Position numbers and translations under genes: made by a program. Positions 8,849-22,925 of a DNA stretch of 64,000 nucleotides are shown one piece after another (position 1 is the stretch's first letter; every line of letters starts with the position of its first letter). Source of the DNA: Agarophyton chilense (taxonomy: Eukaryota; Rhodophyta; Florideophyceae; Gracilariales; Gracilariaceae); the NCBI GenBank assembly GCA_030374765.1, contig JARGXX010000080.1:1302001-1366000 (forward strand), given 5' to 3'. The notes beneath the pieces are model-generated. The model saw only the letters and a list, made by a program, of their open reading frames with translations. It was not told the origin of the DNA and searched no databases.

Positions 8849-9447
8849 TGTCGTACAATCACCTGTGGGGTATGCTACTGTCTTGTCTCCGGAGCGTGGT
8901 GATGCTCAACCTTAGAAGGTAGACGTAATAAACCTCGATGGTAACAGGGCACCGTGAAAACCCGCAGGGGCAAACGGCGGGGCAACTAGCCTATAACGTG
9001 TAGGTGAACGATGGTAGGCGTCGACACGCGGGAAACCCTGTGTGGTAGTTGACAAACAATGAACCAAAAGGTATAGTCGTGACCCTAGTGGTGCCTGTCT
9101 TTATCAGATTAGGGTGGAGGACGTGCAGTTCTTTATATGCAGTGGAATGCACTCTCCAGATCACAAGGGAGGTGCCAGCAAGGCACGGTCTCTGACCTAG
9201 TGTCATAGACCTGGCCAGCACTGGCTACAGTGCCCGGTGGCCACTCCACTACTGCACTAGAATAAATAGAATTGCAATTAGAATTACTCAACCAGAAGGT
9301 ACATGTCATCACTACACGTGGCTGACAACACCTAGATGGTAGCTCGCCCGAAGCTGCGTGGCCGATAATCCCTCGCATCCATCACCTACAAGGTCAGTGT
9401 AGTATATCGACAACCGCAAAGGTCAAAACTTCTGCCACTATACGACA
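8849..9447 (-). repeat. 5' LTR of element 1
   Basis: This is the right copy of the 599-bp repeat of element 1, of identical length to the left copy and with the same inverted ends. Roughly 30-35 scattered substitutions separate the two copies by eye. Confidence 0.92.
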
Positions 9448-9467
9448 GTGTTCTAGCCAAAAGTTCT

Positions 9468-10382
9468 TGTAGAGCAACGCCCAGTTAGGGGATACTTGAA
9501 GATGCAACTCATAGAATGAGGATTGAACCCTCCGAGGGTTATGAATATGATCCCCTCTAAGGTGTGCTGAGGTGGCACTGTTTTCTGGTTAGAATTCGCC
9601 TATAAGGGAAAATTCGGATGGCCCATGGTTGGACTGGCCCCGTGATACACGTGGCTTAATTTTGGCACCGATTTTCAGATATTTGTTAGAACGTTGGATT
9701 TTTGGGCCCTGACAGTTGGATCTCCACGTGTATGGCCCTGAGCAGGTGTGCACTACTGTAGAGTTTAGTTAGTGGGCCCTACTTAGGGAGATGAGATCTG
9801 ACAGTCCGAAGCTCAAAGTAAATGGAAACCAAGGTTGGTCTTCGATACCTTTAGAGGTTCTTCGTCGCCATCGTTTCGGCCTTACAACCCAGAACGGGCT
9901 CTGGTTAGCAACGCCTGCGTAGGGTCACGACTCCACTTGGAGAGTGCCCACTTTTGGGTTCCGTGCAACCACCCCCTTGGGACCGCTCAGACGACCTGCG
10001 TGCACGATACCCCGTGGGGGTTCTGCTTACTTGTTGCGTGCTTTTTGTGTTTCCTTTCGAGGACAGGTTTTCGCCCCTGTATTGGGTTTCTTTTGTTGTT
10101 TCGCCCCTTTTCTGGTTCTCGGGTCCGGTGCCTGTTAGTGCCCGACCCTCGCCCCGTTTTTCCTCTTCGCTGGATTTTCCCCCATTCTTTGGGATACCTA
10201 TACCCATTCCCGATCCAACGGTTTCTACCCCTCACCTCCGTCGGTACTGCCGGAATTCCCCGTGGGAGTTACACCCCACACTACGGGTGGAACGGAGGGC
10301 TCTGTCTCTGAGTCTGCCTCCCCCAGGGAGCAAGGCTTCGAACACCTTGAGAGCACTTCCCGTCGCCGGGTTTTGCTCCACA
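9468..10382 (+). repeat. 5' LTR of element 2
   Basis: This is the first copy of the 915-bp direct repeat. It begins TGTAGAGCAACGCCC and ends GCTCCACA. It should carry the promoter and R region of the element; no transcription start can be assigned by eye. The first bases TGTAG.GCAACGCCCAG are shared with the LTR of element 3, which shows common descent. Confidence 0.95.
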
Positions 10383-10384
10383 AG

Positions 10385-10400
10385 TGGTCTCCCGACTTAG
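10385..10400 (+). other. tRNA primer-binding site of element 2
   Basis: TGGTCTCCCGACTTAG lies two bases inside the 5' LTR. The same motif, with at most one change, sits beside the 5' LTR of elements 1 and 3. The matching tRNA 3' end would read CTAAGTCGGGAGACCA. This is not the initiator-Met site TGGTATCAGAGC usual in plant Ty3 elements; I cannot name the tRNA. Confidence 0.75.
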
Positions 10401-10609
10401 AATCCGTTCTCGGGCTTTTGGGTTGGTCATCCACGTGTTGGAATATCTCTTGGAAGAGGAAGCACCGTCGTGAAGGTTTGTTGTAGTGGTCCCCTTTGGA
10501 AAGGGTGGAATTGGTTTTTATTTTTGTTTTGTGTTACGTCATCCGTTCTCCGGGAATCTCGTGATCGAATTTCATCGTTACCCCGAATCGTCGGTGTCGT
10601 GTCTGCAGC

Positions 10610-12640
10610 ATGACGCCGCCTACCCGCGGTTCTAGGACTGGATCGAACCGTCAAGCGGATTCAGTGCCCCCGGCCCCGCCTAGGTCGAGGAGCTCAATTT
10701 CCGAAGGTCGGAATGATTCCGGTATCGATCCGGACACTCGGAGAGCACCCTCAGTGGTTTCAGGTCCTCGAGAGGTCGTGGCTGTGGGCCCAGCTCCAGT
10801 GGTGGAGACCTCCTCAGCAGCACCCCGAAGTCGGGCCGACCCTGAATTACAGCGCCTGGAGACTCGAGTCGATATCGCCAACGCGGCTCACATCGAGCTC
10901 CTTCAGGAGGTTACTACCCTCCGCCTCAGGGTGGAGGACGCCCCGGTGCGGGGAGTCGCCGATGACCTTCATACCCTGAGGAGGGATGTGAACTCCCTTT
11001 TGGAAAGCTTTGGTACCCCTGGGGTCTTTATCCAGGAGTACCGGAGCCTCGTGGAGGAACACCGCGTGCAAGCGGAACGCTTCCGAGCTCGGCTGGACAC
11101 CCTCGAGGCCATTATCAGTATGGACGGAGACACAGAAGCCTCGAAGGATAAACCCGACGTTTCGGAAGACGAAGAACACCGCTCCGCTAAACGGGACCGC
11201 CGCAAGTCCAAGAAGAGGGTTCACCTCCAAGAGGGTTTATCGGATTCCGATCCCAATCGCTCGCCATCGAGTTCGTCCTCCGAATCTTCGGATAGTGAAG
11301 ATGAACGCCGGTCATCCCGGGCGACTCGGTCGAAGGCTACTTACACCTCTCAAGGGGCAATCCGTACCCGGAAGAAGGGTAGAAAACACCTTGGATTAAG
11401 GGAGCTGAAGCCGACGAATCCTCTCTATCGGAAGCTGCTATCGTACCGCTATTACCGGTTGGATAACCCTTCGGGAGATCGAACATCCCGCGCAACGGGT
11501 AAGGTCAAGGACTACATCAAAAGGCTGAGAATCACCCTACAGAAGAGGGAGTTCACAGGAACAGACCCAATTCTGGTGCTCGATTTCCTTGCGAGGTTCG
11601 TCCAGGAGGCTGACATCCTCGGTATGAGTGAAGTGCAAGCGTATCTTGCATTACCCTATTTCTTAAAGGGAATGGCTGAAGACCAGTTCAACTCCGTCCG
11701 TGGATCATCCCGAGCCTCGGAAGGGGGAGTCACGTGCTGGCCCGAAGCGGTGCAGTACCTCTTGAGGTCATACGCTACTGGAAATGCGATTCAGGAAGCA
11801 ATCCTTGCATTAAGGGATACGCGGCAGAAGCCGATGGAAACCGAAACGGTGTATTCAACTCGCTTGAATAAAGCGTTTCACCGATGCGGGAATGTATTCC
11901 CCGCCTACGAGAGATGCTCCATGTTTATGGATGGTTTGGAACCCTCGATAAGGGCATTGGTTGCCCGACATCGGGAAGAGAAGCGCAAGCTGACCTACTT
12001 GGAACTGGTTCAGTACGCCCAGGCTGAGGGGGATACTCTCCGTGCCCGGCAGAACCGAAAGAGTCGGCCGACACGTGCACTCCTCGCCGATGGAGGTAAG
12101 TCGTCTTTGTCACTCGCAGGAGGCTCTGCCCCTGTGGGGGTCAATGATAACATTCACTTCATGGGAAGTAACCCCGAGTCTATGGGTACGTCTGAGTTGC
12201 CGTCGACATCCGCTCCGACTACGGATGAAGACCCTGCGCTCTATACCCAAGGACGTAGGGTGCCAGCCGCATCGCTACCTTTTGCGAATACTGCTGCTCG
12301 GTTCTCTCGCCCCGGATGGAGGGATACAGCACCACGTCGCGTGGATTCACGTCCACAACCGAACCCGGCAGAGCTGATTTGCTATTTGTGTTACCTCCGT
12401 GGTCACAAAGCACCAGACTGCACATTTCCCCTGCGGGAGGGTTCACGAATTATCGCTCAGTACGAGGCTCTGACCCCTGAGGAGAAAGCTCGAGTCCCGA
12501 GTAGGTCCTGTGAGGAACAAAGGATACTCCGAGCTCACCTTGCTGACAGGGATACAGAACTTGTACCCGCGAACGGGGAACAACCGGTCCCCTTCGAGGC
12601 AGCTGCACCGAATTCGGTGGGGTCCGCTTCGAAAAACTAA
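10610..12640 (+). CDS. Gag-like protein of element 2
   Basis: This 676-residue frame lies between the primer-binding site and pol. The N-terminal third is Ser/Arg/Glu-rich and probably disordered, with a predicted coiled-coil-like stretch at about residues 75-165. A serine-rich acidic run (SSSSSESSDSEDE) follows. The central part at about residues 270-480 has the feel of a Ty3-type capsid domain, including the segment around FLARFVQEAD and the stretch YLLRSYATGNAIQEAI. A single CX2C knuckle-like motif (CYLCYLRGHKAPDC) lies near residue 590, typical of a nucleocapsid zinc knuckle. The position directly before pol supports the call. Confidence 0.85.
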   Translation: MTPPTRGSRTGSNRQADSVPPAPPRSRSSISEGRNDSGIDPDTRRAPSVVSGPREVVAVGPAPVVETSSAAPRSRADPELQRLETRVDIANAAHIELLQEVTTLRLRVEDAPVRGVADDLHTLRRDVNSLLESFGTPGVFIQEYRSLVEEHRVQAERFRARLDTLEAIISMDGDTEASKDKPDVSEDEEHRSAKRDRRKSKKRVHLQEGLSDSDPNRSPSSSSSESSDSEDERRSSRATRSKATYTSQGAIRTRKKGRKHLGLRELKPTNPLYRKLLSYRYYRLDNPSGDRTSRATGKVKDYIKRLRITLQKREFTGTDPILVLDFLARFVQEADILGMSEVQAYLALPYFLKGMAEDQFNSVRGSSRASEGGVTCWPEAVQYLLRSYATGNAIQEAILALRDTRQKPMETETVYSTRLNKAFHRCGNVFPAYERCSMFMDGLEPSIRALVARHREEKRKLTYLELVQYAQAEGDTLRARQNRKSRPTRALLADGGKSSLSLAGGSAPVGVNDNIHFMGSNPESMGTSELPSTSAPTTDEDPALYTQGRRVPAASLPFANTAARFSRPGWRDTAPRRVDSRPQPNPAELICYLCYLRGHKAPDCTFPLREGSRIIAQYEALTPEEKARVPSRSCEEQRILRAHLADRDTELVPANGEQPVPFEAAAPNSVGSASKN

Positions 12641-12642
12641 AC

Positions 12643-15600
12643 TTGGGAGTCTCCCCTGCGGGAGGGGCGTCTTCTAAGCCGGAGTTGAAGACGCCCGAGG
12701 CACTCCAGCTTCGCTCCCCAGCTGTGACTATCCTTTCAAGGAGAACGGCTGACACCGACGTTAACTCGGGATACTTTAGTGTCCTCCGTCGCCCGTGGAT
12801 ACGGTCCCGTAATCTCCGTATTCCGGATCGAGTTATGGTAATGGCCAAGCGGAATTATAAGGTATTCGCCGACTTCGGCCTGTCCAACCAGTTTATGGTT
12901 CGTCAAATATCTGTCCTGGATACAGGAGCCGCTCCTAACTTAATTCATGTTGAATTGTTACCCCCGCTGCTCCGGGTCCAAGTTCGTACTGGTCCACGTT
13001 TGGATATCGCCGATGCGAACAACAACCCGCTACGGACACTGGGTACAATTTCCCTCATGGTGAGGTTAGGCTCCTATCTCGTTCAGCTAGAGTTTATTGT
13101 ATGCAAGTCACTTGCAGCACCAGTCATACTGGGTTGTGACTTTTGCAACCGCTTCGTGGAAGCCATCCGTCCTCGGAATAGAACTGTGGAACTCGAAGAC
13201 GGGTCTACGATCCCAATCGTTCGTAAACCCTTACAGGGAGCAGCGCGAACACGCGTTCCTCTCCCTGTCGCGCAGGAATCTGTGAAGAAGGACCCGTTGT
13301 CTACACGGGTAAAGGTTGCGAAGTCAGTGGCTATCCCGCCAGAAACCCAGGTTTGGGTCACAGTTGTTACCAAGAAAATTGGTGTGCATGTGGTACAACC
13401 GAACCCGTCTCTGTATACGCGGCGTCAACTCGCCCTTGCGAATGGGGTTGTCTCCGTGAAACCGGATAAACCTTTCAAGGTTTTGGTAGCCAACTTTGGA
13501 AAGACAAAGCAGCATTTGGTCAAACACCAGATCCTGGGTTCTGTTCTTCCACACCCGCATGCGGTCGTACCTACAAAGATCTCTATCGCAGGGGTCCTTG
13601 TTGTGGCGGACCCTAAGGAGGGGGAGGACACTGCCGAAATCGCGGAAGACGGTGAGCATACGACTGCAGCTCCACACGCTGAACGCTTTAAACCTCAGGA
13701 GGTTACGGCCCCTATCACAGTAGCAGACCAGACGGATCCTGTTCAGGAATTGGAGAAATGGGATCTCAACCATGTACCCGCATCTCATCGGGAAAAGCTG
13801 AGGCACATGCTTCGTAAATTTACCCCCATGTGGGATGGTTCCCTTGGAACTATTGGGATTACAGAACACCGCATCGTCTTGTTACCGAACACTCGGCCTA
13901 TTGCCCAACACCCTTACAGGGCTGGACCGAAAGCTCGGGAAGAGGAGAAATCTCAGATGGAGAAGATGCTTAAAGCGGGCGTAATTGAACCTGCCCAGTC
14001 CGCTTGGGCTTCACCAGTGGTGTTAGTTCCGAAACCGGATGGATCGTGGCGTTTCTGCATCGATTACAGACGCCTGAACGAGGTAACCATTAAGGATGTG
14101 TACCCGATCCCTCGGATGGACGAATACATCGACTCCCTTGGGAGCGCTACTGTTTTCGCTACCCTCGACGCCAATTCGGGCTACTGGCAAGTCCCTATTA
14201 GGGAGGACGATCGAGACAAAACGGCTTTCGTGTGTCATCAGGGACTTTTCCGATTCCGGAGGATGCCTTTTGGGTTGACAAATGCCCCCGCAACGTTTCA
14301 ACGGGCGATAGACATTCTGTTGGCTCCCTTCAAGTGGAGGACGTGTCTAGTGTATTTAGACGACATTATTGTCTTCTCCAACAACCTGGATGACCACCTC
14401 GAACAAGTCAGGGACGTAATGAAGATACTCCGCGACGCGGGAATCACCTTGAAACTCAAGAAGTGCGAGTTTTTCACCGATTCGGTTAAGTATCTGGGTC
14501 ATATCATCCGTCCCGGACAGCTTTCAATCGATGAAGTACGAGTGAAATCCTTGAAGGAAGCAAAACACCCGAAAACTCAAACGGAGTTGCGATCCTTCTT
14601 AGGTTTGTGTAACGTGTATCGCCGATTCGTCCCGAACTTTGCGGATATTGCCACCCCCCTCAACAGGCTCCTGACGAAGGGACAACCAGTTGAACTGGAA
14701 CCTTTTGGCGACGCGGAAGCGTCTGCCTTCACGGCACTGGTGAATGCCGTAACATCACCGCCAATCTTGGCTCTACCCAATCCTGGGCTCCCTTACGAAG
14801 TGGACACCGATGCTAGTGCAAACCAAGTAGGTTGTGCACTGTTCCAATCCTCTGAGGATGGTGAACGTCACCCTATCGGGTACTGGTCACGTTCCCTGAA
14901 TGTTCATGAAAGGAACTACTCGGTCTCCGAGAAAGAATGTTTAGCCGTTGTGTGGGCCTTAGCCACACTTCGCCCCTATCTGATGGGTACTCGTTTCAAA
15001 GTCCATACGGACCACGCATGCTTGCGTTGGCTCCTGGAGATCTCCGAACCCTCGGGCCGCCTTATGCGCTGGCGTCTCCGACTGTCGGAATTCGACTTTG
15101 AGATCCTGTACAAGAAAGGGAAGATGAACACTCAGGCTGATGCACTATCCCGCTTGGGAACCACAGCGGAAACGGAACCCTACGAGGACGATGACATCCC
15201 ATGTTTTATGGTATCGGACCTCGAGGGAGGAGCTCAACCGCTGACGGATGATGTTTGTGACGATATACTCGTCCACGAGAGTCTGGATTCGCCGACCCGC
15301 TCTTTTATACCTATCTCTCCAGAGGAGATGATACGCAAGCAACAGCTCGACCCATTCTGTACACGGATTCGGGATCGCCTCAACGGAGGTTTTCAGTTAG
15401 CTTTCGAGGACGACGATCAGGGTTACCTAATCAGGACCGTTGGACCTCGCCCAAGGATAGTGGTGCCGCACGCCCTACAACAGAGGGTATTACACCTCAC
15501 TCACTATGTGAAGGTTGGCGCCGACCCCGGGGGAAGAAAACTGTACCTCACGTTGAGAAGGGACTTTTACTGGCCGGCATTGGCATTCGATTGTTACGCC

Positions 15601-17169
15601 GTCAGACGGGCCTGTGCCAATTGCGCCAAGAATGACGTCAAACTTCGGAAGCACTCTAAGAAGTTGATGCTGTTCCCGGCACGGGCTCCACTCGAATTCG
15701 TGGCCATAGACATCCTAGGGGAGTTTATCAGGATGCCCCGAGGTCATCGGTATCTGCTTGTCATTTCTGACAGATTCTCTAAGCTAACGAGAACTGTGCC
15801 GCTGAAGCGGATCACCGCCGCTACCGTCGCGCAAGCGTTCGTGACCCATTGGGTGTTCGTATATGGACCGCCGGTGCAGTTGTTATCCGACAACGGAGGG
15901 CAATTCGCATCAAAGTTCTTTCAGGATGTATGTCGAATCCTTGATGTAAGGAATTTATTTGTTACTACGTATCACCCTCAGGGGAATGGCCAGGTGGAGA
16001 GGTTTAACCGCACGATACTCAACGCTTTGAGATCGTATGTTGCGGATCACCCCAAAAATTGGGACTTGTACACAGACGCTATCACGTATGCATATAACAC
16101 CCAGGTACATCGGGTTACATCGTTATCCCCATTCGAACTGGTACTGTCGAGGACACCGCCGCCGGTCGCCATCGAGGCTCAACCGACGCTGTCGACGTAC
16201 CCGTCACCGGTATTGTACCGAGAAGCCTGGAAGGAGTGGCTTACGAAGATGGTGCCGATAGCCCGGAAAGCAATGGACAAAGCTCAACGCGCCTACAAGA
16301 AGGAATTTGACAATCGGGTTCGCAAACCTCTACCTCAGGTGGAGCCCGACGACTTCATCTTCCTTCGAAAGGAATACTACAATCCTGAAAAGGAACGTAG
16401 GCACAAGCTTTCCCCAATTGTGGACGGACCCTATCGTGTGGTTTCTGTTGACCCGGACACGGTGGTATTGGATATCGCTAACCGCCACGAACGGATCTCC
16501 AGGAACCGCATCACACGAGCGCCCAACCCAAATGTGGAAGTGGTGTCGGCACCAACGCCCTCCACAGGGAACGATTCAACGGAAGTTAACCCGTCAGGCG
16601 GAGATTCGAACACCCGCCCCGTTATACTTCCGCACCCGGAACGTGGTTTAACCGACCTACCGGAAGCTTCGGATACTCCCGAACCTGGGCCCGCTCCCTC
16701 AAGGGCCCAGTCAACGAACTCTTACAGAGTTACTCCCCCACCGGAGGTAATCAAGCCTCCTGGCTCTCCGCCTAAGGAGGGAGAGGAGGACTTAGTTCCT
16801 TCGCAGGACGATGTTTCGGCGTCAGCCAGTCGCCCTAACAGGGAATCTAGTTCTCACAGTGAGACGGCGAGTCCGACCGAGCCGGCGACAGAGAAGTCAC
16901 AACCCCAGCGTATGGGTAGCGACATCACCGCCGACCCAGCCGAGCACGACGTCAGAAAAGATGACGAAACCCCGCCTAGGGAGAGTCGCGTGGAGAACTC
17001 CGCACCCGGAACGCCTACAGAGCCGACGATCACCCGCCGCCGCGGAAGAGACACTGAGGTGTCGCACACTCAAACCCCGCTTTTTCGGGAAGGAGCTGTG
17101 TCAGCGGACCCGCACGGGGAAGATCTCGACGACGAGGTTGACCAAATTTGGCTCTCCGTTATGGAATAG
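12643..17169 (+). CDS. Pol polyprotein of element 2 (protease, RT, RNase H, integrase)
   Basis: This open frame of 1508 codons has all Ty3 enzymatic parts in order. An aspartic-protease motif LDTGAAPN lies near residue 91. Reverse transcriptase spans about 440-640 with YRRLN and the catalytic box LVYLDDIIVF near residue 570. RNase H spans about 710-840 with DTDAS near 720 and TDHACLRW. The integrase has a His/Cys zinc region (HLTHYVK...CANCAKN) near 945-1000 and a D-D-E core starting FVAIDILGE near 1020, with LLSDNGGQF near 1085. The C-terminal 250 residues are Pro/Ser/Glu-rich and unlike known domains. The protease-RT-RH-IN order is diagnostic of Ty3/Gypsy. Confidence 0.95.
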   Translation: MGVSPAGGASSKPELKTPEALQLRSPAVTILSRRTADTDVNSGYFSVLRRPWIRSRNLRIPDRVMVMAKRNYKVFADFGLSNQFMVRQISVLDTGAAPNLIHVELLPPLLRVQVRTGPRLDIADANNNPLRTLGTISLMVRLGSYLVQLEFIVCKSLAAPVILGCDFCNRFVEAIRPRNRTVELEDGSTIPIVRKPLQGAARTRVPLPVAQESVKKDPLSTRVKVAKSVAIPPETQVWVTVVTKKIGVHVVQPNPSLYTRRQLALANGVVSVKPDKPFKVLVANFGKTKQHLVKHQILGSVLPHPHAVVPTKISIAGVLVVADPKEGEDTAEIAEDGEHTTAAPHAERFKPQEVTAPITVADQTDPVQELEKWDLNHVPASHREKLRHMLRKFTPMWDGSLGTIGITEHRIVLLPNTRPIAQHPYRAGPKAREEEKSQMEKMLKAGVIEPAQSAWASPVVLVPKPDGSWRFCIDYRRLNEVTIKDVYPIPRMDEYIDSLGSATVFATLDANSGYWQVPIREDDRDKTAFVCHQGLFRFRRMPFGLTNAPATFQRAIDILLAPFKWRTCLVYLDDIIVFSNNLDDHLEQVRDVMKILRDAGITLKLKKCEFFTDSVKYLGHIIRPGQLSIDEVRVKSLKEAKHPKTQTELRSFLGLCNVYRRFVPNFADIATPLNRLLTKGQPVELEPFGDAEASAFTALVNAVTSPPILALPNPGLPYEVDTDASANQVGCALFQSSEDGERHPIGYWSRSLNVHERNYSVSEKECLAVVWALATLRPYLMGTRFKVHTDHACLRWLLEISEPSGRLMRWRLRLSEFDFEILYKKGKMNTQADALSRLGTTAETEPYEDDDIPCFMVSDLEGGAQPLTDDVCDDILVHESLDSPTRSFIPISPEEMIRKQQLDPFCTRIRDRLNGGFQLAFEDDDQGYLIRTVGPRPRIVVPHALQQRVLHLTHYVKVGADPGGRKLYLTLRRDFYWPALAFDCYAVRRACANCAKNDVKLRKHSKKLMLFPARAPLEFVAIDILGEFIRMPRGHRYLLVISDRFSKLTRTVPLKRITAATVAQAFVTHWVFVYGPPVQLLSDNGGQFASKFFQDVCRILDVRNLFVTTYHPQGNGQVERFNRTILNALRSYVADHPKNWDLYTDAITYAYNTQVHRVTSLSPFELVLSRTPPPVAIEAQPTLSTYPSPVLYREAWKEWLTKMVPIARKAMDKAQRAYKKEFDNRVRKPLPQVEPDDFIFLRKEYYNPEKERRHKLSPIVDGPYRVVSVDPDTVVLDIANRHERISRNRITRAPNPNVEVVSAPTPSTGNDSTEVNPSGGDSNTRPVILPHPERGLTDLPEASDTPEPGPAPSRAQSTNSYRVTPPPEVIKPPGSPPKEGEEDLVPSQDDVSASASRPNRESSSHSETASPTEPATEKSQPQRMGSDITADPAEHDVRKDDETPPRESRVENSAPGTPTEPTITRRRGRDTEVSHTQTPLFREGAVSADPHGEDLDDEVDQIWLSVME

Positions 17170-17673
17170 GAATAGGAACTCCTATGGAGACACTGGAACC
17201 CTCAGGAATGGGAAAGAAATGAGTGAGACCCGTCGGGGACAGCTCAGGAGAGTGCTAGCGCGTGTCGGAAGAGCCACCTCACATCCGCTTGCGTAGTGGT
17301 AACCGGCGCCTGCGCATTTATGTGGCACACGTCGAATGGCACCGAGCCAATCAAAAGGCTCTGACGACCAACCGTCGCGCAAACCGCCTCCGTCGCACGG
17401 CGCGTTGCACAAGAGCAACCTTCGTCCCCGTAGCTCGGGTTGACGTTGAAGTCTTACCCCCCTGAGATTGAAGACGCTGCCGCGTCGCTGTTTCTCAACC
17501 GTCACGAAATCTAAGAACACCGTTGTTATCGGGAAGATCTCAGCTTTAAGAGGAACCCAAACTGAGCCGTTTTGACTCCGTAAACGGAAGTTACAACGTA
17601 GCCCACAGGCCACTCGGCGCCGTTTGGACGAAGTGCTGAGACCCGCTCGCAACACGGAAAAGAACCCACCGGG

Positions 17674-17964
17674 GTGTGTCTAGACCCTACGTTGACACCC
17701 TCAAGGGAACTAGAGCGTTCCAAGATGGAAGAGAAGCCCGAACAGGGAAAAGTGTACCCGCAGGAATTCGTTATCGATCGCATCGTGCGTCACATCTACA
17801 CCCCCGAGGGAGAAGTTCGCTACCAAGTCCGATGGTACGGATTCTCGCCTGAGGAGGAAACAGTGGAACCCATTGAGCACCTTCCGAGGTCTAAGGTTTT
17901 ATCCTATCACCGACGCGCTCGGGTAACCTTGCCTCCAAATCTGGATCGTGCCCAAGTCGGGTAA
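17674..17964 (+). CDS. Chromodomain part of element 2
   Basis: This 97-codon frame lies about 500 bp beyond the pol frame. It carries a chromodomain-like core: VIDRIVRHIYTPEG, then YQVRWYGFSPEEETVEP and the end LPRSKVLSYHRR. Chromodomains normally sit at the integrase C-terminus of chromoviruses and steer insertion toward modified histones. The same core, with the LPRSKV.SY ending, closes the long frame of element 3, which supports it as a true part of this lineage. Whether it is made as part of a longer product is not shown by the sequence. Confidence 0.75.
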   Translation: MCLDPTLTPSRELERSKMEEKPEQGKVYPQEFVIDRIVRHIYTPEGEVRYQVRWYGFSPEEETVEPIEHLPRSKVLSYHRRARVTLPPNLDRAQVG

Positions 17965-18138
17965 ACCACCACGGGAACTGGTGTGGATGCGACCTCGAAG
18001 TGAGGAAGATGTTGGACCTCTGAAGAGGAATTGAGGAGAGTATCCCGAAGAACACGTATTGAGAGGGAATGTCTACTGGCCCTCGGCCTAGCGCCGTTAA
18101 CCGGGGAACACAACACCGGTTATCGGGACAGTTTATAA

Positions 18139-18300
18139 TGAAAAAGGAAAAGAAGACCCACGAAGTGGAGAAGAAGATTAAGAAGAAGATTGGACCCTAG
18201 GAAGGGAAGAAGATGAAGAAGAAGATGAAGAAGATCCTAAGAAGGAAGAAGAAGGGAAGTAGAAGTTAAGATCCTAGGAAGGAAGACGAAAGGAAGTTAT
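18139..18300 (+). repeat. Purine-rich (GAAGAA) tract in element 2
   Basis: About 160 bp are almost entirely A and G, with repeated AAGAAGA units and two copies of the string GATCCTA.GAAGG. The tract lies between the chromodomain part and the end of the antisense frame. On the opposite strand it is a pyrimidine-rich trailer just behind that frame's stop. It could act as an internal polypurine primer or in transcript ending; both are guesses. Confidence 0.7.
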
Positions 18301-18363
18301 GCAAATATCAGAAGTTTACTATTGTCGCCAAGCTATGGACTCCACAATTGACCGAAGGCGGAA

Positions 18364-20259
18364 CTACGGAAAGCCCAAGGAGGGACCCGCCCCACCGTTG
18401 GGATTCTGACCCTGATGGTACGCCGAGGCGAAAGCCAACATCTGGCTCACATCCGTCATACCCGGGGGAATCGGAATGCCTGCGTTCACGAGGCCTTGTC
18501 GCACACTATCCGCTTGCGGAGTGGCAACCGGCGCCTGCGCAAGGGTGTTCACACCCCACCCGGGGGGAGCAGATGGACCGCCACCGGATGCATTCGCCGC
18601 CGCAGCTGAGGTCGTTCCCACTGGTTGGAAGGGTGCAGATGGCTCCACAGGAAGTACTCCACTAGGAGCTGGCATGTCGTTATCCAACGCTGGATCGTCC
18701 AGGTCTACTGGAGGCTCGTACTCGTAATCGTCGGTATAAATGAACCCCGTCGGGTGTCCCACGGGCATCGGTCGAGGCGAGTCCATCAGCGCCCGTGCTT
18801 GCGCCGCGCTGATGCGAACCCCTTCGAAGGGATTGTAATAGACCCAGTTACCGGAGCCCGGATCGTACCGGCCAGGAGACTTGTCTCGCGCGGATCCTTC
18901 CCCTGCGGGCTGATTTGCCACTGGAACTCGATCCCATTGGGTGTTGTCGATCACGTCCAAGATTGGATACAGGTTCTGCACGTTGCTGGCCGAACCCAAC
19001 GCTGGGACAAGGTCGATCTGACGCATGATGGTCCGTAGCATCGGAGGAATATGCCAGATACGGAAATGGTCATGAGCATCCCAGAGGAGGTGCGCCGCTA
19101 CGCGGGCTTCCCACTCGGCTGCAACGAGGGCCCAGTATCCCGAGTTCGGGTCGTGCATCAAACGAGACCCGATATAGTAGATGCATGGGGGCAGTTCAGC
19201 AAAGCACCCTCGGGGGACCTCGACCCTACTCCACCAAGCTGGAAGGGGCACGAATCGCCCAACCTTCGCCGTGTTACGGATACGCTCCAGTTCCACGTGA
19301 GGATACGGGACAAGGAACCCGAAACGGGAGCGCGAGCGGCGCTCGAAGCGCACGCGTCGATCGAACCCATATTGGGTAAACCGCCGTTGAAGGTACCTGA
19401 ATTCAGCCCGAAGGATGGAACGACTCCATTGGAGCATATCTTCTCGGAGAGGAAAACCCGGTCCGCGGAACTCGGCTTCGGGAAAAGCTGCCAGGTTATC
19501 CCCGTAGGAGACCTCACCGTACGTGCGGTAATAGGCGACATCGAACCCGTACTCCGGGGGAACCAGATGGTCAAAGCGTGACCTCTCCAGTCGCTGGTAG
19601 GCCAGAGCCGCCATCGCTGCACGCGCCTTGTCCAGGGACTCCCCGCGACTGCGGTATAGATACTGAGGCTCTATGGCTACCCGCGCCCTCCAATCGGGAG
19701 AACGTACAACCTCGACAGGTAGGCCACCCGGCAATAAGCCGTCCTCCACGTAGGAGTCGATGAGCTCATCGTCGCAAACCGCTGCCGGATGGAACCACGG
19801 AGCGCGGGAATATATCACCGGATCGGTAAGCGGACTCCACCTTCGAAAGGATTCGTTTGAGATCCAACCTCTGGAGTTTGCTACCAAGGGCATCGCATGA
19901 GCGGAGTTCCACGCCACCGCGTTAATGTCCAAATCCTCCTGAGGATGTCGGTTGACCGCCGAGGCGGAAGGTTCGGTACCTGACGGAGCCGCATCCAAAC
20001 CGGAGAAATATCCACCCTGCTGGGGAGCTTCGTTGTCCGCCGGCGCGGAGGCCGATGGCCCCGAGAGTGGGTTGAGGACGTATGGGTTCATTCCCTTGAG
20101 AGGGCTAGTCGAGAACGCTGTTGCGAGAAGTTGCTTATCGCCGAAAGTCGGAGGAGTAGAAGAAAGTTGTACCGATGTGCCGGTTTTGTGGCGATCCTCA
20201 GAAGTGGTGAAGGACCCTATTGGGAAAGAAGTATGTATAGTGATCGGAAAGTTAGACAC
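18364..20259 (-). CDS. Antisense 631-residue open frame in element 2, unknown function
   Basis: A frame of 631 codons without a stop lies on the strand opposite to gag and pol, between the chromodomain and the 3' LTR. The predicted product has a Ser/Thr/Pro-rich N-terminus (to about residue 130). A charged, aromatic middle follows (about 130-440), rich in Arg, Tyr and Trp, with runs such as RRVRFERRSRSRFGF. The C-terminus is Pro/Gly/Ala-rich (about 480-631). I recognise no domain. The middle looks like a folded protein rather than a chance frame. Long antisense frames at this place are known in some plant Ty3 elements, so a real accessory gene is plausible. The matching sense strand has no long frame there. 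Confidence 0.6.
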   Translation of the reverse strand: MSNFPITIHTSFPIGSFTTSEDRHKTGTSVQLSSTPPTFGDKQLLATAFSTSPLKGMNPYVLNPLSGPSASAPADNEAPQQGGYFSGLDAAPSGTEPSASAVNRHPQEDLDINAVAWNSAHAMPLVANSRGWISNESFRRWSPLTDPVIYSRAPWFHPAAVCDDELIDSYVEDGLLPGGLPVEVVRSPDWRARVAIEPQYLYRSRGESLDKARAAMAALAYQRLERSRFDHLVPPEYGFDVAYYRTYGEVSYGDNLAAFPEAEFRGPGFPLREDMLQWSRSILRAEFRYLQRRFTQYGFDRRVRFERRSRSRFGFLVPYPHVELERIRNTAKVGRFVPLPAWWSRVEVPRGCFAELPPCIYYIGSRLMHDPNSGYWALVAAEWEARVAAHLLWDAHDHFRIWHIPPMLRTIMRQIDLVPALGSASNVQNLYPILDVIDNTQWDRVPVANQPAGEGSARDKSPGRYDPGSGNWVYYNPFEGVRISAAQARALMDSPRPMPVGHPTGFIYTDDYEYEPPVDLDDPALDNDMPAPSGVLPVEPSAPFQPVGTTSAAAANASGGGPSAPPGWGVNTLAQAPVATPQADSVRQGLVNAGIPIPPGMTDVSQMLAFASAYHQGQNPNGGAGPSLGFP

Positions 20260-20288
20260 CCGCGGCTCGGAATGTTCTTCCTCGTCTT

Positions 20289-20301
20289 AAGGAGGGGGAG
20301 A
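20289..20301 (+). other. Polypurine tract of element 2
   Basis: AAGGAGGGGGAGA abuts the 3' LTR start at 20302. It is the expected plus-strand priming site. Elements 1 and 3 have G5 purine runs in the same place. Confidence 0.8.
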
Positions 20302-21216
20302 TGTAGAGCAACGCCCAGTTAGGGGATACTTGAAGATGCAACTCATAGAATGAGGATTGAACCCTCCGAGGGTTATGACTATGATCCCCTCTAAGGTGTG
20401 CTGAGGTGGCACTGTTTTCTGGTTAGAATTCGCCTATAAGGGAAAATTCGGATGGCCCATGGTTGGACTGGCCCCGTGATACACGTGGCTTAATTTTGGC
20501 ACCGATTTTCGGATATTTGTTAGAACGTTGGATTTTTGGGCCCTGACAGTTGGATCTCCACGTGTATGGCCCTGAGCAGGTGTGCACTACTGTAGAGTTT
20601 AGTTAGTGGGCCCTACTTAGGGAGATGAGATCTGACAGTCCGAAGCTCAAAGTAAATGGAAACCAAGGTTGGTCTTCGATACCTTTAGAGGTTCTTCGTC
20701 GCCATCGTTTCGGCCTTACAACCCGGAACGGGCTCTGGTTAGCAACGCCTGCGTAGGGTCACGACTCCACTTGGAGAGTGCCCACGTTTGGGTTCCGTGC
20801 AACCACCCCCTTGGGACCGCTCAGACGACCTGCGTGCACGATACCCCGTGGGGGTTCTGCTTACTTGTTGCGTGCTTTTTGTGTTTCCTTTCGAGGACAG
20901 GTTTTCGCCCCTGTATTGGGTTTCTTTTGTTGTTTCGCCCCTTTTCTGGTTCTCGGGTCCGGTGCCTGTTAGTGCCCGACCCTCGCCCCGTTTTTCCTCT
21001 TCGCTGGATTTTCCCCCATTCTTTGGGATACCTATACCCATTCCCGATCCAACGGTTTCTACCCCTCACCTCCGTCGGTACTGCCGGAATTCCCCGTGGG
21101 AGTTACACCCCACACTACGGGTGGAACGGAGGGCTCTGTCTCTGAGTCTGCCTCCCCCAGGGAGCAAGGCTTCGAACACCTTGAGAGCACTTCCCGTCGC
21201 CGGGTTTTGCTCCACA
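20302..21216 (+). repeat. 3' LTR of element 2
   Basis: This is the second copy of the 915-bp repeat, with the same ends as 9468-10382. It is followed by the target-site duplication GTTCT at 21217-21221. About four substitutions separate the two copies by eye. Confidence 0.95.
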
Positions 21217-21782
21217 GTTCTGTTTTAGATCTATGGCTGATTTTCAAACTGTGACCCTTATTAATCTTTCTGAACATAGTTACAGTGCAAGATAGAAGAA
21301 AATTATAGAGCTTAGTTTTTCCGCTTCGAAATAGGAGATAAAGTCTACGTTCTGCATTTGTATTACATCGGATGTCAACGACGAGAGAGAGCGCTTTCTA
21401 CAACTCGAATTTTTATGTTGGGCCATGGAATCTTCTTGGCATGGCGTGAATTGGTGTTTAAGCGGGCTTCGGCGAGGCAGAGTATGCTGTGGACTGTGTA
21501 AACGATTATTTACACAAGGTTGGAGACGAAAATCTTGTGTGGAAGCTTTTTGAGGAGGAGAGTTTAGAACGCTTTCAAAACAATGTGACACTCCCAGAAT
21601 GGCAGAGGTTTTCCATTTGTGCGCCGCATGTTGCGAAATGGGTTGATTTAGTGCTGCTGTCGGAGGCCCTGGACTGTTAGAGGACGAGGTCAATGCGGGG
21701 TTCGACATGGCGGAAGCCAAAACCCGAAGCAATACCAAGGTAAAAGGGGAGCTTAAGTAGAGGGAAGGAAGGTTTGCATATA
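21217..21782. other. Flank between element 2 and the Tc1 element, no gene seen
   Basis: This is 566 bp of single-copy-looking sequence with short frames on both strands. None has a recognisable domain, and a 173-codon minus-strand frame here is Ser/Pro-rich without any family signature. It is probably old repeat or intergenic DNA. Confidence 0.4.
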
Positions 21783-21930: not shown

Positions 21931-22925
21931 ATGGCTCGTGGCGCACCTCTGACACGCTCTGAACAGCTGGAAATCATGGAATTAGTAGGTCAGGGTATGA
22001 TTACAGCAGATATAGCCCGAAAACTCAAGCGCAGCCCAAAAACAATCAGCAACTTCATCAAAAACCCCGCTACATACGGAACAAAGCGTTCAACCGGCCG
22101 TCCTACGGCACTATCTCCGGCCGATAAGCGTGGAATTAAGCGAGAACTATGCCGTAACACTTCATCTTGCGGGAAAATTGTGAAAAATATAAATTTGCCT
22201 CTATCAAGATCTACAATAGGGCATGAAGTCAACCGTCAAAATTTGTTCAAGTACACAAAAATGAGGAAAACTTTTTTTTTAAAAGATAATCACAAGAAAA
22301 ATCGAGTTGAATGGTGTGCTAAAAAGGCTTATTGGAAAACGGAATGGAATAATGTTATCTTTTCCGACGAAAAAAAGTTTAACCTTGATGGTCCAGATTG
22401 CTATAAATTTTATTGGCATGATCTACGAAAAAAAAGAAGGAATTTGTGATTAGGCATTCAGGAGGCGCATCAGTAATAGTTTGGGCTGGAATCTCTACGA
22501 AAGGAGCAACTGATATGGCTTTTGTTGAAACTACAATGAACTCTGAGAAGTATGCTGAGGTTCTAGAAAACTATCTTTTACCTTTTTCATACTGTATGCA
22601 CAGAGAAGAATTCATTTTTCAGCAAGATAATGCACCTGTGCATAAGTTTAATTCTATGAAACAGTGGTTCAATAGTCTAAATATTTCAGTTATGGAATGG
22701 CCTGCGCGCTCTCCTCACCTCAACCTTATCGAAAGCATTTGGGGAATGTTGGCCCGAATGGTTTATGGGCCAGGAAGGCAATTTGATACAGTTTTTGATC
22801 TGAAAAATTGTATTAAAGATTGCTGGGAAAAGATTGACTGTAATGATATCAATCCTTTTATAGAATCAATGCCAAAGCGTTGTATAAGTGTTATACAGGC
22901 TAGAGGAGCAAAAATAAACTACTGA
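21931..22925 (+). pseudogene. Tc1 transposase (DD34E), two overlapping frames
   Basis: The first frame (21931-22449) starts at an ATG 20 bp inside the left repeat. It has an N-terminal helix-turn-helix (SEQLEIMELVGQGMITADIA) and a second, HTH_Tc3-like, region with GRPTALSPADKR. The first catalytic Asp lies in IFSDEKKF. The second frame runs through 22925 with the second Asp in FQQDNAPVH and the Glu in HLNLIESIWG. Exactly 34 residues separate them, the Tc1 hallmark. Combined length near 330 residues fits the family (about 340). The frames overlap around 22428-22449 beside an A8 run followed by G; the second lies in the -1 frame. Simple loss of one base is the plain reading; ribosomal slippage is an alternative. 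Confidence 0.9.

What the first reader, a model, noticed from the sequence alone, without database searches (positions are those of the whole stretch)
18364..20259. A 631-codon antisense gene candidate inside a young Ty3 element
The frame lies opposite to gag/pol, 3' of the chromodomain, and its product has a globular-looking Arg/Tyr/Trp-rich middle between two disordered ends. No sense-strand frame explains it, and I recognise no family. Long antisense frames in this position are described for some plant Ty3 elements; one in an algal chromovirus-type element would be new to me. It is the best candidate for an undescribed accessory gene in the window.
Basis: partly seen in the sequence, partly recalled or inferred. 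Interest (0 to 1): 0.78.

Follow-up and report, generated by a model that had tools for sequence, protein, structure and literature searches.

The report
Conserved antisense gene in algal retrotransposon
A jumping gene in what is probably a red alga carries a real extra gene written on its opposite strand, kept by selection in two distantly related families of the element and with relatives elsewhere, although what its protein does is not yet known.

Summary
An uninterrupted antisense frame lies between the chromodomain ORF and the 3' LTR of a young Ty3-type element (9468-21216; LTRs 99.6% identical). It is a genuine gene: 640 codons stop to stop, where 2000 shuffles gave at most 427. The likely start is ATG at 20091, so 575 aa, not 631. 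Three database relatives match it (52, 41, 38% identity), one from the red alga Gracilariopsis chorda. A second element family in the same genome carries it in the same antisense place; pol is 59% and this protein 36% identical (L048). Between families, fourfold sites are randomised (24% identity, 27% expected) while codon positions 1 and 2 stay 49 and 57% identical: long purifying selection on the antisense frame. Indels shared by copies number 1 in its 1728 nt, against 18 in 555 and 14 in 399 nt of spacer. No domain or fold was found. It sits in the slot of plant antisense aORFs (Retand, Grande, RIRE2), but has no TRP28 match and lies in a chromodomain element. Transcription and function are untested.

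The parts
9468..10382 (+). 5' LTR (915 bp, TG...CA)
   Evidence: aligned to 20302-21216, 911 matches, 4 mismatches, no gaps
9463..9467 (.). target-site duplication GTTCT (left)
   Evidence: read from the printed flanks
10610..12640 (+). gag-position ORF, 676 aa, no Pfam match
12643..17169 (+). pol ORF: reverse transcriptase, RNase H, integrase zinc-binding and core domains in the order RT-RH-IN
17602..17964 (+). separate chromodomain ORF (first ATG at 17725), in the pol frame but behind the pol stop
   Evidence: Pfam PF00385 E=1e-07
18364..20091 (-). the antisense gene: 575-aa protein, ATG at 20089-20091, stop codon at 18364-18366
20092..20286 (-). upstream in-frame open stretch that is more variable than the gene; probably 5' leader, not coding
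20289..20301 (+). polypurine tract abutting the 3' LTR
   Evidence: read from the sequence
20302..21216 (+). 3' LTR; inferred site of the antisense promoter (not tested)
21217..21221 (.). target-site duplication GTTCT (right)

Best explanation
It is a conserved protein-coding accessory gene of a chromodomain-bearing Ty3 element lineage, encoded on the strand opposite to gag and pol between the chromodomain ORF and the 3' LTR. SHOWN: the frame is open, its protein has relatives covering 64-97% of it, two divergent element families in one genome carry it in the same place and orientation, and it has been under purifying selection for longer than synonymous sites need to saturate. INFERRED: it is translated from an antisense mRNA that starts in or just beside the 3' LTR, since only about 210 bp separate the ATG from the LTR. 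It can therefore be made only from an integrated (or other double-stranded) DNA copy and not from the packaged sense RNA. Its protein, which has no membrane segment, would then work in the nucleus on the element's own expression or integration, as is proposed for plant antisense aORFs and known (recalled) for HBZ of HTLV-1. My confidence is about 0.95 for a selected coding gene, 0.6 for an antisense mRNA from the 3' LTR region and 0.4 for a nuclear regulatory or integration-helping role.
For: Frame length beyond the maximum of 2000 shuffles. Relatives P0001, P0002, P0003 at E=0, 2.3e-267 and 1.8e-103, covering 97, 83 and 64% of the query, with the three-sequence profile (P0001 and P0002 were in that profile, P0003 was not). 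A second family in the same genome: of three places fetched, L048 and L049 have integrase, and L049 the chromodomain, on the other strand; L050 was fetched without that context. Window against L048: codon positions 1/2/3 identical at 49/57/28%; fourfold sites 24% identical against 27% expected by composition (n=108); L049 and L050 give nearly the same; BLASTP in the aORF frame E=2e-82 (36% over 475 aa), in two sense shadow frames 1e-10 and 9e-21. Indels shared by 2 or more of 46 copies: 1 in the aORF (1728 nt, 2 copies), 0 in the pol part (1570 nt), 1 in the 210 nt upstream of the ATG (4 copies), against 18 in 555 nt and 14 in 399 nt of spacer and 9 in 915 nt of LTR (alignment may split one spacer indel into several). 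Sites with variants in 4 or more of 40 sequences: 2.7% in the aORF against 9.1% just upstream of its ATG, 6.5% and 5.0% in the spacers, 6.8% in the LTR, 1.2% in the pol part. Variants shared by 3 or more copies: 24 synonymous, 27 non-synonymous, 0 stops; 14.9 synonymous expected, P=0.0025. Start triplet ATG in 16 of 16 copies whose next 18 bases match the window exactly, out of 46 looked at. Highest 19-residue hydropathy 0.78-1.33 in 4 of 4 proteins.
Against: No transcript evidence of either strand. Variants private to one copy show no bias in the true frame, as expected after insertion but giving no support; 9 of the 10 private indels in the aORF are not multiples of three. The synonymous excess at 3 or more copies is the best of the thresholds tried (2 or more: P=0.065; 4 or more: P=0.029), and wrong frames reach similar values: the antisense frame shifted by one shows an excess for private variants (203 against 172.8, P=0.0025) and sense frame 1, whose third positions coincide with those of the antisense frame, for shared ones (22 against 14.9, P=0.026; 16 against 10.0, P=0.019); those frames hold 14 and 21 stops. 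So the within-family synonymous test is weak. Codon usage does not single out the antisense frame: a sense frame correlates better with gag, pol and a host gene. Only 10 of 37 pol-chosen copies keep 600 aa or more open. No fold or domain supports any particular biochemical function.
Confidence: 0.6

Rival explanations
1. Antisense copy-number or silencing control by RNA: the conserved feature is an antisense transcript that pairs with sense RNA, and the protein is incidental.
For: Antisense transcription of retroelements, with dsRNA or siRNA consequences, is discussed for plant aORFs (PMC7264820, passages).
Against: RNA pairing does not need a reading frame, yet codon positions 1 and 2 are kept while fourfold sites are randomised, and shared indels are rare in the gene. 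No Rfam family reaches its gathering score in 9300-21400.
Confidence: 0.07
2. A structural or packaging protein (a second Gag-like or nucleic-acid-coating protein) made from the antisense strand and entering the particle.
For: Arg- and aromatic-rich conserved core (10.8-12.4% Arg, 5.1-5.9% Tyr, 3.0-3.8% Trp in five proteins) with an E-R-x-x-R-S-R-x-G stretch invariant in seven sequences.
Against: No profile relation to this element's own gag (hhalign probability 0.1%); core pI 6.0-6.9 in four of five members and 8.7 in P0001, so not generally basic.
Confidence: 0.15
3. A captured host gene carried as cargo (transduction).
For: The Gracilariopsis chorda relative is annotated simply as a hypothetical protein, so a host locus is not excluded.
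Against: [quoted passage not shown] here at least 70 places of one family and 68 other places that P0003 hits (three examined) carry it, at 36% identity between families. No Pfam family matches. An ancient capture is still possible.
Confidence: 0.12
4. Chance open frame in G+C-rich antisense DNA without function.
For: Antisense frames can be open by composition (59% G+C here); private variants are neutral.
Against: Longest frame in 2000 shuffles 427 against 640 observed; relatives in other organisms and a second family.
Confidence: 0.01
5. An envelope-like gene placed in reverse.
For: [quoted passage not shown]
Against: Antisense orientation; maximum 19-residue hydropathy 0.78-1.33 in four proteins, no membrane segment by that measure.
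Confidence: 0.02

Closest known systems
Retand-lineage antisense ORFs with the TRP28 domain (PF04195), plants
   Same: Antisense ORF between pol and 3' LTR, found across the lineage's clusters; function unknown, DNA binding and a regulatory role proposed (PMC11963269, abstract and passages).
   Different: No PF04195 match reported in any of 7 family members nor over the cut-off anywhere in this genome; Retand is a non-chromovirus lineage and TRP28 is reported only from flowering plants, while this element has a chromodomain and is probably red algal.
Maize Grande gene23 and rice RIRE2 antisense aORFs
   Same: Same slot and orientation; gene23 is transcribed in antisense from a promoter upstream of it and its product goes to the nucleus (PMC7264820, passages and section 7).
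   Different: Direct sequence comparison not made; the protein searches found three relatives and no plant protein, scoring about 8000 candidates each.
HTLV-1 HBZ (antisense gene of a retrovirus)
   Same: Works-like model: an antisense-encoded nuclear protein that regulates the element (named in PMC11963269; an antisense promoter inside the HTLV 3' LTR is named in PMC7264820).
   Different: No direct comparison made; 575 aa here, HBZ is a small bZIP protein (recalled).
Chromodomain Ty3 elements (chromoviruses)
   Same: RT-RH-IN order and a chromodomain 3' of integrase.
   Different: Chromodomain sits in a separate ORF behind the pol stop; an antisense gene follows; RT clade not tested.

Membership tests
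Ty3/gypsy LTR retrotransposon | pol domain order RT-RNase H-integrase | tested here: met
   RVT_1 462-622, RT_RNaseH 714-817, Integrase_H2C2 941-998, rve 1015-1112
Ty3/gypsy LTR retrotransposon | paired LTRs with target duplication | tested here: met
   915-bp LTRs, 4 mismatches, GTTCT duplication
Chromovirus | chromodomain 3' of integrase | tested here: met
   PF00385 E=1e-07, though in a separate ORF
Chromovirus | reverse transcriptase falls in the chromovirus clade | not tested
   no reference RT set fetched
Retand antisense aORF (TRP28) | antisense ORF between pol and 3' LTR | tested here: met
Retand antisense aORF (TRP28) | PF04195 domain | tested here: not met
   not reported for any of 7 members (limit E 10, though HMMER's filters drop most matches above about 0.1); one sub-threshold match in the genome (20.2 bits, cut-off 26.2), not at a listed place of either family
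Retand antisense aORF (TRP28) | non-chromovirus element | tested here: inconclusive
   chromodomain present, which speaks against Retand, but the RT clade that defines the lineage was not tested
Env-like aORF | sense orientation | tested here: not met
Env-like aORF | transmembrane segment | tested here: not met
   maximum 19-aa hydropathy 0.78-1.33 in 4 of 4 proteins
Antisense accessory gene (kind, as HBZ or gene23) | antisense transcript | not testable with these tools
   no RNA data
Antisense accessory gene (kind, as HBZ or gene23) | selected coding frame | tested here: met
   chiefly; in support

The most novel reading that the evidence does not exclude
Red algal chromodomain Ty3 elements evolved, independently of flowering-plant Retand and Grande elements, a dedicated antisense gene in the pol-3'LTR slot. 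Its product, a protein family unlike any described one, is made only from integrated DNA and acts as an HBZ-like switch on expression or integration. The repeated use of this slot would then reflect a general rule of element control rather than chance.
Probability: 0.3. Interest if true: 0.8.

Novelty: new variant of a known kind. Interest (0 to 1): 0.58.

Why it matters
In the reviews I saw, antisense accessory ORFs of LTR retrotransposons in this slot are described from flowering plants and their role is open. A second antisense protein in the same slot, without sequence relation to the plant TRP28 domain, in chromodomain elements of what is probably a red alga, with clean evidence of coding selection over saturated divergence, argues that the arrangement evolved more than once and does something for the element. 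It gives two defined families in a small genome in which antisense promoters, proteins and their effects can be tested. It also warns annotators: the Gracilariopsis chorda relative is listed as a hypothetical protein with nothing in its name to suggest a mobile element; whether it lies in an element was not checked.

Tried and rejected

A mistake of mine: the chromodomain rows used 17726-17962, one base out of frame (the ATG is at 17725). Its N/S numbers are invalid and dropped; its divergence and site-variation figures are little affected. In some searches a few copies with large deletions or other insertions are poorly aligned, which inflates singletons; searches use BLAST pieces instead. 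Two fetched stretches (L018, L047) overlap by 977 bases. In some searches and 58 sequences covering under 90% of a region were dropped: of 40 sequences 34 stayed for the aORF; of 47 (46 copies and the window) 41 stayed for the aORF and 40 for the pol part. One search counted open frames only in the 37 of 39 copies that reach past the aORF. The protein searches scored only about 8000 candidates each, so more relatives may exist. Genome searches scored only the best candidates (70 of 1866, 77 of 1823, 40 of 773, 68 of 1833 first-look candidates), so copy numbers are lower bounds, and the 68 places were not all examined (three were); comparing the printed lists by eye, none of them is in the list.

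Papers: PMC11963269 abstract and passages; PMC7264820 abstract, passages and one section; PMC12477816 and PMC10388701 passages only; PMC12502185 searched for five terms without a hit; others only in search listings. That I know of no report of this gene rests on those searches of an open-access library only.

Full report
WHAT IS THERE. The window is part of an 80-Mb genome in 135 contigs. Positions 9468-21216 hold one complete LTR element: two 915-bp LTRs that differ at 4 sites, flanked by GTTCT. On the plus strand follow a gag-position ORF of 676 aa (10610-12640), a pol ORF (12643-17169) with RT, RNase H and integrase in Ty3 order, and after the pol stop a short ORF with a chromodomain (17602-17964, first ATG 17725). 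On the minus strand, between the chromodomain ORF and the polypurine tract, is the frame in question.

THE FRAME. It is open for 640 codons; 2000 shuffles of the region gave at most 427. The GTG start is an artefact of the bacterial start-codon list. The first in-frame ATG, at 20091, agrees with the start of relative P0001 and with an M(D/N)P in the second family. In 16 of 16 copies whose next 18 bases match the window exactly (of 46 looked at) the ATG is intact. Sites with variants in 4 or more of 40 sequences are 2.7% inside the gene and 9.1% in the stretch upstream of that ATG. The product is 575 aa.

RELATIVES. A search of 5.8 billion proteins found two relatives, and a profile of the three found a third (it covers 64% of the query); adding the second family's proteins found no more. 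P0002 is a hypothetical protein of Gracilariopsis chorda, a florideophyte red alga. P0001 and P0003 are ENA proteins without a name. The core (about residues 87-450) is densely conserved, with an E-R-x-x-R-S-R-x-G stretch and P-R-G invariant in seven sequences; a conserved segment near the C-terminus is modelled as two helices (low confidence overall). Searching this genome with P0003 gave 68 places, none of them in the list, many with frames of about 611 codons. Three were fetched. In L048 and L049 integrase, and in L049 the chromodomain, lie on the opposite strand upstream, as in the window; L050 was fetched without that context. Between window and L048 pol is 59% identical over 502 aa (L049: 54 and 51% in two pieces) and the antisense protein 36% over 475 aa.

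SELECTION. Between window and L048, fourfold-degenerate sites in conserved codons are as different as chance allows (24% identical, 27% expected, n=108), while codon positions 1 and 2 are 49% and 57% identical and position 3 28% (L049 and L050 nearly the same). Synonymous change is saturated and the protein is kept: this is the strongest single result. Sense-strand translations show only weaker shadow similarity (E 1e-10 and 9e-21 against 2e-82). Within the first family, 39 copies chosen by pol DNA, to which add 7 copies chosen by the antisense protein, form a shallow set in which private variants are neutral in pol and in the antisense gene alike. Variants shared by 3 or more copies are biased to synonymous (24 against 14.9 expected, P=0.0025; no stop among 51); at 2 or more copies P=0.065 (54 against 45.0, 5 stops among 148), at 4 or more P=0.029 (16 against 10.2). 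The pol part with only 24 variants at 3 or more shows no bias (8 against 7.7). Among the 46 copies, indels shared by 2 or more number 1 in the gene, 0 in the pol part and 1 in the 210 nt upstream of the ATG, but 18 and 14 in the two short spacers and 9 in the LTR; private ones number 10, 6, 1, 18, 26 and 17. Variation shared by 4 or more sequences is lower in the gene than in the spacers, its upstream stretch and the LTR (Fisher P from 0.024 to 8e-7) and higher than in pol (P=0.004; pol was the selection query, which favours it).

RESULTS AGAINST. Only 10 of 37 pol-chosen copies keep 600 aa or more of the frame, against 18 of 37 that keep the 523-codon pol part. Of the 70 best-scoring places, the window included, 42 have no stop inside (counted), but that list favours intact ones. 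Nine of 10 private indels in the gene are not multiples of three, as expected of decay after insertion. Wrong frames also give low P values: the antisense frame shifted by one for private variants (203 against 172.8, P=0.0025) and sense frame 1 for variants in 3 or more copies (22 against 14.9, P=0.026), the latter explained by coinciding third positions; they hold 14 and 21 stops. The within-family synonymous test is therefore weak, and the case rests on the comparison between families. Codon usage does not favour the antisense frame. No RNA evidence could be had.

HOW IT MAY WORK. The ATG lies about 210 bp from the 3' LTR, so the mRNA leader must begin in that gap or, more likely, in the LTR itself (inference). 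Such a gene is expressed from DNA copies only. Plant antisense ORFs in this slot can be transcribed from an upstream promoter (Grande gene23), some have nuclear products, and they are suspected of regulating the transposition cycle (PMC7264820, PMC11963269). By analogy I take a nuclear, regulatory or integration-helping protein as most likely, at about 0.4. It is not envelope-like (no membrane segment) and shows no relation to the element's gag. A particle component and ancient host capture remain possible. Structure prediction failed, probably for lack of relatives, so no biochemical activity can be named.

WHAT IS KNOWN. Antisense ORFs between pol and the 3' LTR are a recognised kind in plants, where 97% of Retand clusters encode a TRP28 domain (PMC11963269, abstract). 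This protein has no TRP28 match and sits in a chromodomain element, whereas Retand is a non-chromovirus lineage. Literature searches for antisense ORFs or chromodomain Ty3 elements in red algae returned no listing that describes it (open-access library only, mostly seen as listings). I therefore rate it a new variant of a known kind: same slot and orientation, apparently unrelated protein, different element and host lineage.

VERDICT. It is a real, conserved and apparently undescribed antisense gene, moderately surprising to a specialist; its function is open and testable.

Noticed in passing
17167-17964: The chromodomain lies in a separate ORF behind the pol stop. The spacer is full of shared indels (18 in 555 nt), including a 50-bp insertion at 17340, so the chromodomain frame relative to pol differs between copies: same frame in 15, different in 17, motif not found in 8 of 40 sequences. 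How the chromodomain is expressed is unclear.
   Followed up: partly
L049:2456-4399 (-): In this second-family copy too, pol ends at a stop and an in-frame 257-aa ORF with the chromodomain follows directly.
   Followed up: partly
18140-18300: A purine-rich, indel-rich tract (GAAGAAG-like) on the sense strand lies just beyond the 3' end of the antisense gene; it might mark transcript ends or be a second polypurine tract.
   Followed up: no
21931-22925: A Tc1/mariner-type transposase in two overlapping frames lies about 700 bp behind the 3' LTR (HTH_38 and HTH_Tnp_Tc3_1 in the first part; the second part was not scanned).
   Followed up: no
P0003, about residues 555-648: The most distant relative carries an extra C-terminal tail with Lys/Arg groups that look by eye like nuclear-localisation signals, though a count of 5 Lys/Arg in 8 residues found none in P0003; the window protein lacks the tail.
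   Followed up: partly
window 18409-18531 (protein residues 521-561): Both low-confidence models show the same two-helix unit near the C-terminus, with block means of pLDDT mostly 53-79; it might be a small separate domain.
   Followed up: partly
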